This document shows, in pieces, positions 18,919-23,530 of a DNA stretch of 54,469 bases. The first letter of the stretch is position 1. Each line of letters starts with the position of its first letter. The stretch comes from Gammaproteobacteria bacterium. Lineage in GTDB: Bacteria; Pseudomonadota; Gammaproteobacteria; HK1. A program made the position numbers and the translations under genes. The stretch lies in assembly GCA_009937425.1 (NCBI GenBank), contig JAACFO010000014.1, positions 1 to 54,469 of the forward strand. The letters run 5' to 3'. A model generated the notes under the pieces. That model was not told the DNA's origin. It worked only from the letters and a program-made list of their open reading frames with translations, and made no database searches.

Positions 18919-21900
18919 CTAGTGCAACGTGCCGGGGAGTTCCCCGGACTCCAAGCGCTCGGTGACGTTGCTCATGACACGATCGACCAAAGGCTCGCCT
19001 TCGATAACTTTGACGTTGCCACGCTGGAGTTCCAGTGCAAGGCTGTGGTGCGTAGCATCCACGACCTTGGCGCCTGCCAGATCGGTGAACAGGAAGCGAC
19101 CGCTGTCGGGACTGATCCAGGCAAGGCGTCCGCGGGTTTTGGTGCCATCGGCGTTGGCGAACTCGAGCCAGTGTCCGACATCGAGTCCGTCGACGAAGCC
19201 GAGGAATTCCTCGGTAATAGTTTCTACACTCTGCTCGCTCAAGGTGTCTTCCAGATCCACGTCCTCGGCTCCGGACAACCAGTCGAGCTCGTCGTCGCCG
19301 TCGGCCTGAGCGCCAGCCGCGGCGCTCTCCAGTTCTTCGCGCAGCGCACGCATGATTATCTGTACGGCCATTGCGCTGGCTACCTCGCCCGCGTTGCAGC
19401 CACCCATACCGTCGGCAACCATGGCGATGCCGGCGTCGTTATCGATGGCAATGCCGTCTTCGTTGTGCGACCTTCTGCGACCGACGTCGGTTTTTCCAGT
19501 GAACTCGATTTTCTTTTCCAGTTCGCTAACGGGTTGGATCTCGTCGCTGGCGGGAAAGGGTTGCACGACTCGCGCGAGTACCACGGATATGTTGTCCCGC
19601 CCGCCATTCTTGTTGGCCAGCGCGACGAGGCTCTCGCTGGCCGTGGCTAGATCGTCCTCGTGTTTCTGCAGGCGGATTTCGATTTCGTTGTCTTCGACCA
19701 TGTCGGTCAATCCATCCGAGCACAGCAGAAAAAGATCGCCAGGTTCCGCGTGGATTTCCTGCACGTCCGGGGCTACTGATTCCTCGACTCCCACCGCGCG
19801 GGTGATGACATTACTCTTGACGTTTTTCTTGGCTTCCTCGGGTGTGTAAAAACCCTTGTTCACCAGGTCCTGCATCAACGAATGGTCCAGGGTAAGCTGC
19901 TGGAGCGCTCCGTCCTTCAGCCTGTAGAGTCGCGAGTCGCCGACATGGGCGACGGTCACGCGGTTGTCATGGAATCGCGCGGCTACAAGGGTTGTCCCCA
20001 TCCCTGCGCATTCCGGCTTGGATTCTGCCGCACGGTGAATGACGGCGTTGGCCCGATGCACGGCCTGCATGAGAACGGCTTCGACTCCGTTGGAGGTTTC
20101 CTCGGCCGGTTCCACGACGGCTTCCGGAGTGGGGGCCGGCGCCGCGTCGGACTCGCCACCACTGGCGCGCACTGCGGCCAGATGATGGTTGGCAAGTGCG
20201 GCGAGGAAGTTTTTGCGTTCATCCGCCGGCAAGGAGATCTGCTTCATACCGTCCTTGACCCGATTGAGGAGCCCGGGTAACAGCTGCACCAGCTTTTTTC
20301 TATCCTCCGGTGAACTGATTGGGCTCAGGCTCCAGATGACCTCTTCCATGGTCTCCACGGACTGGCGCCAGCCTTCGCTATCTTCACCTTCGTCGAAATA
20401 GCAAAAGACCAGCAGCTCCTTCCAACGGTTATGAAAAAACTTCTGAATGATGTCCGGAATCGGCTTGCCATGGAAGCTCTTTGCTATGGTCGCCTGGGCG
20501 CGAACTCTCGCCAGTTCCAGTCGTTCGCGACCCTCCAGGGCGTTGGCCGCTCCTTGTGTCGACTCTTCGGCCACTTCCTCTTGATTGGCGAGGAATTCCT
20601 TCAACTGCTCGAGCACGACGTTGAACACGTCGACGCTGTCCTCGAACTCCTCCAGTACCTTGTGTACGTATGAGTCCACCTGGTTGTAGTAGGCGCCACC
20701 TTCGTCGTGGCCCTGATTCCAGCCTATCGCCGCTTCGGCGAGGGTGTTCAGGAGTTTGCGGGCCGGATGCGATTTCTTCGAGAAAAAAGTCTTATCTATC
20801 AGCGCGACCTTGAGCAAGGGAATCTGCAGTCGACCAATGAGCGCTTTCATGGGGTCAGGAACGTTTTCGTCATCCAGGATAAAGTCGAACATCATGGAAA
20901 CTACGTCGAACATGACGACGTCGATCTGCCCCATACCGTCAGTGACGTTGGCGGCTTTCAGCTCGCGCAGAACGTTGGTGTTACCGGCGCCAACGAGCGC
21001 AGGGTCGATGACCGGCGCACCGCCGGCTCCCGCCGGTGCGTTGCCGTGCTGGAGCGCTGTCAGGTTGCCGAGAACCTCGGTCTGCCGGACCTTCGCCTGG
21101 GCTTCACCGACTGCGCCGGGTGCCCCGGCGGTCGCGTTCATGACCTGCTGCAATGCATTCATCAAACCGGCCGAGCTCGGGTCGTCCCCGATGGATGAAG
21201 ATTCACCTTGTGCCGGTGCGGCATCCGCCGGCGATTTTGCGGCATTACCCTTGGCGGCGCCGGCGCGCTTGACCACTTCTCGCTTGATGGTGGGCAACAC
21301 ACCCTTTTCGATGAGCAGGTCGTTGATGCTCTCGTAGAGTTCCTGGGTTTCGCCGATGACGTGTATGTCGAACAGCTTCAGGATAATGAGCTTGACCTCG
21401 ACACTGGTCTCCACGATTCCACAGGCATCGTGGAAGGCCCGACAGACGATTTGTGGCCCCAACGGATTGTCGTCTTCGGCGATTTCCTTTTGACCCAGGA
21501 TCAGCGCCATGCGCTTGTCCAGGGGAAACATCTCGTCGTGGCAGACGTTACGAATCTTGGAGACCATGTTGGTCAATGCAAGGGATTCTTCCAGCGCCGT
21601 CTCGTCGAGCATCTCGAGCTTGAGCTCGCCGCCCTCATCGGAATCGCCCTTGTCGTCGCTGTCGTTGGATAGTGCGCGGACCCGCTTGACGACTTCTTCC
21701 GACAGCTCTCCGAAGCGCTTCTTGAATTCTGCGTTGATATCCGGGCGCTTGAGCCGCATCTCGCGCATGGTGTCGAAGTACACGCTGTGATCGGCGGCGT
21801 TCTCGGATTGGTTGACGCGGTCGAACAGGGCATCGTCGACCTTGTCCAACATGGCGGGAAACGCGCGCACCAAGTGCTCGACGGCGAGTTTCTGGCACTG

Positions 21901-21990
21901 GTCCAATATCCCACGCGAGTCGCGCTTGCGCCGGTTTTGGAGTGACGCCTCGTGATCTGCCATCTTGACGACTTTGTCTTGTTTCATCAT
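18919..21990 (-). CDS. DUF1631 protein with inserted, circularly permuted PP2C phosphatase domain, 1023 aa
   Basis: Residues about 30-610 and about 925-1015 are DUF1631: N-terminal R-G-I-L-D-Q-C-Q-K-L-A, middle D-V-V-S-M-M-F-D-F-I-L-D-D, and the C-terminal barrel G-H-W-L-E-F ... R-L-A-W-I-S-P ... F-L-F-T-D. Between them lies a full set of PP2C (Stp1-like) motifs in swapped order. Residues 632-808 hold the C-terminal half (G-M-G-T-T-L-V-A, H-V-G-D-S-R, D-H-S-L, C-S-D-G-L-T-D, G-G-R-D-N). Residues 826-888 hold the N-terminal half (K-T-D-V-G-R-R-R-S-H-N-E-D, A-D-G-M-G-G). The halves sum to about 240 residues, one domain. All metal-binding aspartates are present. It likely dephosphorylates Ser/Thr proteins. 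The role of DUF1631 is unknown. Confidence 0.9.
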   Translation of the reverse strand: MMKQDKVVKMADHEASLQNRRKRDSRGILDQCQKLAVEHLVRAFPAMLDKVDDALFDRVNQSENAADHSVYFDTMREMRLKRPDINAEFKKRFGELSEEVVKRVRALSNDSDDKGDSDEGGELKLEMLDETALEESLALTNMVSKIRNVCHDEMFPLDKRMALILGQKEIAEDDNPLGPQIVCRAFHDACGIVETSVEVKLIILKLFDIHVIGETQELYESINDLLIEKGVLPTIKREVVKRAGAAKGNAAKSPADAAPAQGESSSIGDDPSSAGLMNALQQVMNATAGAPGAVGEAQAKVRQTEVLGNLTALQHGNAPAGAGGAPVIDPALVGAGNTNVLRELKAANVTDGMGQIDVVMFDVVSMMFDFILDDENVPDPMKALIGRLQIPLLKVALIDKTFFSKKSHPARKLLNTLAEAAIGWNQGHDEGGAYYNQVDSYVHKVLEEFEDSVDVFNVVLEQLKEFLANQEEVAEESTQGAANALEGRERLELARVRAQATIAKSFHGKPIPDIIQKFFHNRWKELLVFCYFDEGEDSEGWRQSVETMEEVIWSLSPISSPEDRKKLVQLLPGLLNRVKDGMKQISLPADERKNFLAALANHHLAAVRASGGESDAAPAPTPEAVVEPAEETSNGVEAVLMQAVHRANAVIHRAAESKPECAGMGTTLVAARFHDNRVTVAHVGDSRLYRLKDGALQQLTLDHSLMQDLVNKGFYTPEEAKKNVKSNVITRAVGVEESVAPDVQEIHAEPGDLFLLCSDGLTDMVEDNEIEIRLQKHEDDLATASESLVALANKNGGRDNISVVLARVVQPFPASDEIQPVSELEKKIEFTGKTDVGRRRSHNEDGIAIDNDAGIAMVADGMGGCNAGEVASAMAVQIIMRALREELESAAAGAQADGDDELDWLSGAEDVDLEDTLSEQSVETITEEFLGFVDGLDVGHWLEFANADGTKTRGRLAWISPDSGRFLFTDLAGAKVVDATHHSLALELQRGNVKVIEGEPLVDRVMSNVTERLESGELPGTLH

Positions 21991-22648: not shown

Positions 22649-23530
22649 TTACCATCCCGTCGGCAGTTGGGGCTTGCCCATAAGTCCTTCGATGATGTCG
22701 GAGTAGTCCGGATCGTCAGCGGCGATATAGCCGTGCCTCACCAGAAAATCGATAATCACCAGCGCGCAGTTAAATTTGAATGCATCGCTGTCGCGTACAG
22801 TTTCCATAACCTGCTCCATCGGCCATAGACAAAATGCGTCGACTTCACCGTCGGTATTCACCGGCGAAAAGTCCGCGGGTAGCTCCAGATCAAAGTTGAA
22901 TATCAGGTCGGGGCGAAATCCGACGCTGGTTTCAAGTGCATAGGTGATGGCTCCAACGGCCCGCACGTGGTGGGCAATGTCACGCGGGATCCCCGCTTCC
23001 TCCGCGCACTCCTTCAACATATTGTCGTAAACACCGATATCGGCTGGCTGACCGCCCGCGACCATTTGGTCGAGCTTGCCGGGCCCCGTGGGTTTGCTCA
23101 GCGAGCGGCGCGCAATCCACATCTTTAACCCGTCTGCCCCGCGCACAAAACCGTTCATGTGCACGCCATATGCACGCACACCCAGCAACGGTACCGCGGC
23201 CCGCTCGATCAGCAGATAAGGGGACTCCGACCACGCCCGGTTAACCGGGTACAGCTCGTCGCGCCAACCATCGATGTGGCCTTCGTCGCGCAAGCGTTGC
23301 ATCACTTCGCTGACAGCCAGCGTGCGTTCCGCTGCCGGCATGTCCCCGGAATCGAGACTTGCCGCCAACGTGACACCTCTCTCGTCGACCCGCAGTACCT
23401 CCGGCCAGCGGGCAAGAATTTCTGCAAACGCGTGCTTAACGCAGCCGACACGGATGCCGCTGACGGAGAAGGGCAGGAAGCTGGCCAGATCGTGCGTGTT
23501 AGCCGCACGAATTTTGTCCAGATAGCTCAT
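22649..23530 (-). CDS. DUF4743/Nudix hydrolase family protein
   Basis: 293 residues. N-terminal domain (about 1-110) of DUF4743 type; residues about 115-260 form a Nudix domain. The Nudix box (about 159-181) reads G-G-Q-P-A-D-I ... K-E-C-A-E-E-A-G-I: the metal-binding E-x-x-E-E core is conserved, but the first glutamate and the arginine of the consensus are I and K. Relatives hydrolyse nucleoside diphosphate derivatives such as thiamine pyrophosphate. The substrate here is unknown. Confidence 0.88.
   Translation of the reverse strand: MSYLDKIRAANTHDLASFLPFSVSGIRVGCVKHAFAEILARWPEVLRVDERGVTLAASLDSGDMPAAERTLAVSEVMQRLRDEGHIDGWRDELYPVNRAWSESPYLLIERAAVPLLGVRAYGVHMNGFVRGADGLKMWIARRSLSKPTGPGKLDQMVAGGQPADIGVYDNMLKECAEEAGIPRDIAHHVRAVGAITYALETSVGFRPDLIFNFDLELPADFSPVNTDGEVDAFCLWPMEQVMETVRDSDAFKFNCALVIIDFLVRHGYIAADDPDYSDIIEGLMGKPQLPTGW

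What the first reader, a model, noticed from the sequence alone, without database searches (positions are those of the whole stretch)
18919..21990. Circularly permuted PP2C phosphatase inserted in a DUF1631 protein
Seen: residues 632-808 carry the C-terminal half of a PP2C (G-T-T-L, H-V-G-D-S-R, S-D-G-L-T-D, G-G-R-D-N), followed at 826-888 by the N-terminal half (H-N-E-D, A-D-G-M-G-G). DUF1631 flanks them on both sides. Together they make about 240 residues with all metal aspartates, so a single complete domain with order swapped. In PP2C folds the N- and C-terminal strands lie close together (family knowledge), so joining them by an 18-residue linker and opening the chain between helices 1 and 2 is structurally reasonable. 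I infer that the phosphatase is active and could be controlled by DUF1631. I know of no description of this architecture.
Basis: partly seen in the sequence, partly recalled or inferred. Interest (0 to 1): 0.85.

Follow-up and report, generated by a model that had tools for sequence, protein, structure and literature searches.

The report
Circularly permuted phosphatase inside DUF1631 protein
A bacterial protein of unknown role carries a protein phosphatase (PP2C) whose two halves are encoded in swapped order; it is predicted to fold into one compact, likely active enzyme, and its chain appears to be cut open between two helices that serve as an on/off switch in at least some relatives.

Summary
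The minus-strand ORF 18919-21990 (1023 aa) reads DUF1631 helical part, PP2C C-half (635-808), PP2C N-half (828-892), DUF1631 C-terminal part. It is no assembly error: a 46%-identical paralogue with the same order lies elsewhere in the genome, the sister species has both copies in conserved gene order, and 119 of 120 listed relatives of the region are permuted. R840, E844, D845, D860, G861, D685, D759, D799 and N800 are invariant in 110 of 110 aligned full-length members; both halves are under strong purifying selection (dN/dS 0.08, 0.02). AlphaFold2 predicts 628-895 as one domain (pLDDT 90.7, pTM 0.89). The cut maps between alpha1 and alpha2, the 'switch helices' that control metal M2 in SpoIIE (PMC5468089). 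I infer an active, DUF1631-controlled phosphatase; neither is tested. It is rare: 2 of 369 sampled genomes of the class, DUF1631 itself in 124. All four non-PP2C DUF1631 proteins examined carry GGDEF-EAL (three also PilZ) and three lie beside Ser/Thr kinases, pointing to kinase/c-di-GMP signalling. Searches of an open-licence paper library found no description. New variant of a known kind.

The parts
18919..21990 (-). whole gene: DUF1631 protein with permuted PP2C, 1023 aa
20167..21924 (-). DUF1631 helical region, residues 23-608
   Evidence: Pfam PF07793 4e-193; helical in the model
20089..20166 (-). linker 1, residues 609-634, predicted disordered, length 17-88 over 110 members
19567..20088 (-). 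PP2C C-terminal half, residues 635-808 (alpha2 to last strand)
20020..20088 (-). helix 635-657, first element of the permuted domain, taken as switch helix alpha2
   Evidence: secondary structure of models; named alpha2 from the alignment to PstP from residue 62 on
19936..19938 (-). D685 of HVGDSR, metal ligand by homology
   Evidence: invariant 110 of 110
19714..19716 (-). D759 of SDGLTD, metal ligand by homology
   Evidence: invariant 110 of 110
19591..19596 (-). D799-N800 of GGRDN, metal ligand by homology
   Evidence: invariant 110 of 110
19510..19566 (-). linker 2, residues 809-827, joins the old C and N termini; length median 19, sd 2.5
19315..19509 (-). PP2C N-terminal half, residues 828-892 (three strands, then alpha1)
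   Evidence: PDB stretch 828-879 on PstP N-terminus; dN/dS 0.018 over 827-890
19456..19473 (-). R840-D845 (RSHNED), phosphate-binding Arg and acidic residues by homology
   Evidence: R840, E844, D845 invariant 110 of 110
19408..19413 (-). D860-G861, M2-site Asp and the switch glycine (equivalent of SpoIIE D628/G629 by motif)
   Evidence: invariant 110 of 110; SpoIIE role from PMC5468089
19315..19398 (-). helix 865-892, last element of the permuted domain, taken as switch helix alpha1
   Evidence: 867-894 in the domain model
19216..19314 (-). linker 3, residues 893-925, mostly predicted disordered, length varies
18946..19215 (-). DUF1631 C-terminal domain, residues 926-1015, strands and helices in the model
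   Evidence: PF07793 positions 654-741, E 1.3e-24

Best explanation
This is a DUF1631 protein, likely a signalling protein, that carries a circularly permuted PP2C (PPM) Ser/Thr phosphatase, which is predicted to fold within one chain into a PP2C core, is likely catalytically active, and would be controlled by the DUF1631 parts attached to its two switch helices. Shown: the order C-half then N-half, the 19-residue linker joining the old termini, the invariant catalytic residues, the selection on both halves, and the conservation of the order. Predicted: one compact domain (AlphaFold2). Inferred: the new chain ends lie in the alpha1-alpha2 loop, so the helical DUF1631 region runs (over a flexible linker) into alpha2 and the C-terminal DUF1631 domain follows alpha1. 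In SpoIIE a rigid rotation of alpha1/alpha2 moves the glycine equivalent to G861 to complete metal site M2. DUF1631 conformational change or partner binding would move these helices and so switch the phosphatase, which would remove phosphate placed by the cell's Hanks-type kinases, possibly in answer to c-di-GMP.
Against: No activity data. Order-bound aligners do not place the N-half on known PP2Cs, so its PP2C-like position rests on sequence plus pTM. Linkers 1 and 3 are predicted disordered and vary in length, which speaks against a rigid lever and for docking. Full-length pTM is only 0.36: the placing of DUF1631 relative to PP2C is unknown. The C-terminal DUF1631 domain showed no profile similarity to PilZ, and no ligand is known. 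No kinase was seen among the 20 neighbour proteins of permuted genes that were scanned, and none of the four scanned neighbours of the window's own copy is a c-di-GMP gene.
Confidence: 0.6

Rival explanations
1. Swapped assembly: the N-half of one chain would complete the C-half of another, so the phosphatase exists only in a DUF1631-driven dimer or oligomer.
For: SpoIIE's PP2C domain crystallised as a dimer with strands beta1-3 swapped at the beta3-alpha1 joint (PMC3517971, passages). The data on conserved residues and selection fit equally.
Against: Linker 2 keeps its length (median 19 residues) and a single chain is predicted to fold alone with pTM 0.89; the SpoIIE domain is mainly monomeric in solution.
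Confidence: 0.15
2. Active permuted PP2C joined to DUF1631 only for localisation or substrate delivery, with no control through the switch helices.
For: Both connecting linkers are predicted disordered and vary from 15 to 103 residues.
Against: [quoted passage not shown] the order is the same in the classified DUF1631 members.
Confidence: 0.15
3. Pseudo-phosphatase: the permuted domain no longer hydrolyses phosphate and acts as a switchable adaptor, as RssB does.
For: PMC5468089 describes RssB as such a case (section 15); permutation could have cost activity.
Against: The catalytic residues are invariant in 110 of 110 members, and the N-half with the M2 site is the most constrained of the segments measured.
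Confidence: 0.09
4. Assembly chimera or misread permutation.
For: The source is a draft assembly with 320 contigs and 5% estimated contamination.
Against: Two paralogues, two orthologues with matching neighbours in G001, further copies in G005 and G356, and 119 of 120 listed relatives.
Confidence: 0.01

Closest known systems
PPM/PP2C Ser/Thr phosphatases of the PstP/Stp1/PrpC type
   Same: Motifs and metal residues; 34-43% identity of the C-half to solved PstP, Stp1, tPphA and PppA; NCBIfam Stp1/IreP score above cut-off for the window protein
   Different: Order of the halves is swapped, the chain opens between alpha1 and alpha2, and the domain sits inside DUF1631; the paralogue falls just below the NCBIfam cut-off
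Stand-alone PP2C in the same genome (G000 C276, downstream of a Ser/Thr kinase)
   Same: 52% identical over query 630-815; 47% over a stretch that includes the N-half (788-894)
   Different: Normal order, 273 aa, no DUF1631
SpoIIE, RsbP, RssB (PP2C domains controlled through the switch helices)
   Same: Expected control point: alpha1/alpha2 and the glycine of the DG motif (PMC5468089)
   Different: There the regulatory domain docks on the helices of a normal-order PP2C; here the helices are the chain ends of the domain
DUF1631 proteins without PP2C, incl. NCBIfam PacR family NF058594
   Same: Helical region and C-terminal domain; PacR model matched at E 3e-86
   Different: No phosphatase; PacR score 290 bits against a cut-off of 1200; the four examined in G000 and G007 carry GGDEF-EAL instead
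Proteasomal proteases, proposed relatives of PP2C by circular permutation among other changes
   Same: A change of chain order of a fold with the same switch helices is what PMC5468089 postulates (section 22)
   Different: The cut here is inside the switch pair and the catalytic residues are those of a phosphatase; no evidence of descent

Membership tests
PPM/PP2C phosphatase | Conserved Arg, acidic residues, DG, and three Asp motifs for metals | tested here: met
   R840, E844, D845, D860, G861, D685, D759, D799, N800 invariant in 110 of 110
PPM/PP2C phosphatase | Profile score above the curated cut-off | tested here: met
   PF13672 64.5 bits against 24; PF00481 37.5 against 20.3
PPM/PP2C phosphatase | Alpha-beta-beta-alpha fold formed by one domain | tested here: inconclusive
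   One confident domain predicted; C-half matches PP2C structures; position of the N-half not superposed
PPM/PP2C phosphatase | Canonical N-to-C order of motifs | tested here: not met
   C-half precedes N-half; so it is a permuted variant, not a canonical member
PPM/PP2C phosphatase | Metal-dependent phosphatase activity | not testable with these tools
   needs an assay
NCBIfam Stp1/IreP equivalog NF033484 | Score over cut-off 230 | tested here: met
   247.2 for the window protein, in two stretches; the paralogue L002 scores 224.2, below cut-off
DUF1631 (PF07793) | Score over cut-off, helical and C-terminal parts present | tested here: met
   644 bits against 33.7; C-terminal part alone 87 bits
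PacR family NF058594 | Score over cut-off 1200 | tested here: not met
   290.5 bits
PilZ domain (for the C-terminal part) | Profile similarity to PilZ | tested here: inconclusive
   no Pfam PilZ hit in 21 members; hhalign probability 1%; fold not compared
Switch-regulated PP2C (SpoIIE/RsbP type) | Regulatory domain acting on alpha1/alpha2 | not tested
   only the location of the cut supports it

The most novel reading that the evidence does not exclude
The first natural circular permutant of the PP2C fold: a family of active phosphatases whose chain was cut inside the allosteric switch so that one signalling scaffold (DUF1631) holds both switch helices directly, wiring kinase and c-di-GMP signalling to Ser/Thr dephosphorylation. 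It would also show that the change of chain order postulated between PP2Cs and proteasome proteases can happen without losing the active site.
Probability: 0.45. Interest if true: 0.85.

Novelty: new variant of a known kind. Interest (0 to 1): 0.76.

Why it matters
PP2C enzymes occur in all kingdoms of life (PMC5468089, abstract), and as far as I know all characterised ones share one chain order. A conserved permuted family with an intact set of catalytic residues is a natural experiment on fold topology, and the place of the cut gives a direct test of the switch-helix model of PP2C control. Bradshaw et al. [quoted passage not shown] this family bears on that claim. It would also give a first enzymatic handle on DUF1631, which the paper library mentions in three papers, once each (listing only).

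Tried and rejected
Assembly error: rejected (second copy, synteny, relatives; raw reads were not available). Two-gene or frameshift reading: one open frame, no stops. Stand-alone permuted PP2Cs: among the best 120 of 7998 scored proteins of about 147-469 aa, 4 were permuted by motif, 112 normal and 4 unclassified (two, P0124 and P0159, have the N-half motif but no complete C-half motif pair; two, P0130 and P0211, have the C-half motifs and a missed N motif); P0122, printed, keeps a DUF1631 tail, and P0123, P0125 and P0175 begin inside the C-half, so the permuted ones look like fragments of this family. Normal-order PP2C inside DUF1631: none seen among the 120-row lists; their normal-order rows are kinase-PP2C fusions by the Pfam lists. 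C-terminal domain as PilZ: no support; its best PDB matches (BmrR, E about 0.08) I take as noise. Single or multiple origin: open. The permuted rows are not one side of a branch in the tree, and 0% of 200 bootstrap trees make them so, but holding them together is not rejected (p-AU 0.31). Two earlier trees were discarded: motif picking, and gapped alignment rows read as sequences, corrupted domain extraction; one search gave p-AU 0.35. Linker 1 by regular expression failed (10 of 120) and was replaced by alignment. Searches for PacR in the paper library gave nothing relevant by their listings. The fold searches aligned only the C-half (the Foldseek lists give no ranges).

Full report
OBSERVATION. 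The gene lies on the minus strand at 18919-21990 and encodes 1023 aa without stops. Pfam gives DUF1631 with best stretch 23-639 (E 4e-193, two stretches) and PP2C over the middle. The PP2C motifs come in the order GMGTTL 663, HVGDSR 682, SDGLTD 758, GGRDN 796, RRRSHNED 838, ADGMGG 859, so the C-terminal part precedes the N-terminal part. A search of solved structures matches 635-809 to the larger, C-terminal part of PstP and 828-879 near its beginning. The last 100 residues are again DUF1631.

NOT AN ARTEFACT. The same genome (G000, 4.87 Mb, 320 contigs) has a second full-length copy on another contig, 46% identical, with the same permuted order. The sister species G001, whose contig C3 has the length of JAABYT010000053.1 of MAG CS4-K024, has both copies. 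Copy A is flanked in both genomes by homologous genes, which in the window are RmuC and Sel1 on one side and DUF4743-NUDIX on the other; copy B by an IF-2B-type gene and a PreP-type peptidase gene. G005 of the same family and G356 of another family carry further copies. In the protein collection 119 of 120 listed relatives of residues 620-900 are permuted; the exception is a kinase-PP2C fusion (stricter motifs: 116 permuted, 3 unclassified, 1 normal). A second search, from the distant member P0116, listed 120 rows with 37 new ids: 6 permuted, 30 normal, 1 unclassified.

HOW RARE. Of 369 genomes drawn evenly from the class (G000 among them), 124 have DUF1631 and 2, G000 and G356, have the permuted domain (up to four candidates per genome were scored). 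Of 398 genomes drawn from the phylum only G000 had a match at E 1e-70. Of 17 genomes of the order, 3 have it.

EVIDENCE FOR A WORKING ENZYME. In 110 full-length members (at least 940 aa, of 121 sequences in hand, the rest left out as shorter) R840, E844, D845, D860, G861, D685, D702, H703, D759, D799 and N800 never vary. Mean column conservation is 0.72 and 0.73 in the two halves, 0.70 in the DUF1631 core, about 0.4 in the linkers. Between G000 and G001, dN/dS is 0.084 (C-half) and 0.018 (N-half) for copy A and 0.090 and 0.059 for copy B, lower than in the DUF1631 helical part (0.114 and 0.154); synonymous change is near saturation, so these are rough. The linker that joins the old termini keeps its length (median 19, sd 2.5, range 7-28); the linkers to DUF1631 do not (sd 15).

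WHERE THE CHAIN IS CUT. The domain begins with alpha2 and ends with alpha1. In SpoIIE these two helices rotate together by about 45 degrees, and the authors propose that this moves G629, next to D628, to complete metal site M2; they argue that many regulators act on this switch (PMC5468089; passages found by word search, abstract, sections 15 and 22 seen). The equivalent pair here by motif is D860-G861, shortly before alpha1. The natural termini of PP2C lie together, so a plain insertion would also have been possible (family knowledge); instead the DUF1631 parts are joined to the switch itself. The mechanism proposed from this is inference. The flexible linkers favour docking of DUF1631 on the helices over a stiff lever.

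PATHWAY. Four DUF1631 proteins without PP2C (G000 C28, C81, C5; G007 C37) were scanned: all carry GGDEF-EAL after DUF1631, three have an N-terminal PilZ (not C81), and three (not C5, where no kinase motif was seen within 14 kb) are divergent from a Ser/Thr kinase with a cyclic-nucleotide-binding domain. G000 has 24 kinase matches at E 1e-10. Near permuted genes, a GGDEF-EAL gene follows after 13 bp in G356, a PilZ gene after 66 bp in G005, and a response regulator-GGDEF-EAL gene lies about 3.3 kb off in G000 copy B; nothing of the kind is among the four scanned neighbours of the window's own copy. No kinase is among the 20 scanned neighbour proteins of permuted genes (G001's neighbours were not scanned). 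So DUF1631 appears with both phosphorylation and c-di-GMP modules, and the permuted form adds the opposing phosphatase; that these act together is inference.

ORIGIN. The closest non-permuted relatives seen are stand-alone PP2Cs, 45-60% identical over the C-half; the one in G000 lies downstream of a kinase (the next gene looks FHA-like by eye, not scanned). In a tree of 51 permuted and 24 normal domains the permuted rows are not one side of a branch, in the best tree or in any of 200 bootstrap trees, but a single clade is not rejected (log-likelihood difference 2.6, p-AU 0.31). One permutation event followed by duplication and spread is the simplest reading, not a shown one.

KNOWN OR NEW. Searches of the paper library for circular permutation or circularly permuted with PP2C, with protein phosphatase 2C, with phosphatase and PPM family, and with serine threonine phosphatase gave 16 rows in all; by title and start of abstract none describes a permuted PP2C. 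Two of these papers were opened: one uses the words for another protein, CpgA (PMC3517971, passages), the other for the PP2C-proteasome comparison (PMC5468089). DUF1631 occurs in three papers, once each (listing only). The library lacks most subscription papers. Some database entries name the protein 'serine/threonine protein phosphatase PrpC' or 'DUF1631 family protein', so the fusion is in databases; I saw no remark on the order.

Noticed in passing
L166:3560-8689, L167:3699-8852, L169:6657-12026 (G000 C28, C81; G007 C37): DUF1631-GGDEF-EAL proteins (two of the three with N-terminal PilZ) are divergently transcribed from a Ser/Thr kinase with a C-terminal cyclic-nucleotide-binding domain: an apparent recurring kinase / c-di-GMP pair.
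   Followed up: partly
L168:6130-8952 (G000 C5): PilZ-DUF1631(part)-GGDEF-EAL protein; no kinase motif seen in the 14 kb fetched.
   Followed up: partly
L131:3416-9518 (G356 C8): PAS-GAF-GGDEF-EAL gene 13 bp downstream of a permuted DUF1631-PP2C gene, same strand.
   Followed up: partly
G000, whole genome: 24 Hanks-type kinase matches at E 1e-10 in a 4.9 Mb genome, which seems many to me (recalled expectation).
   Followed up: no
L003 (G000 C276): Kinase gene followed by a normal-order PP2C and an FHA-like gene (FHA by eye), the likely ordinary counterpart of the permuted enzyme.
   Followed up: partly
window 22649-23530: DUF4743-NUDIX gene beside the permuted gene, with a 76%-identical homologue beside it in G001.
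   Followed up: no
window 18919-21990, NCBIfam NF058594: DUF1631 proteins match a 'PacR family' model well below its cut-off; I found no paper on this PacR in the library.
   Followed up: partly
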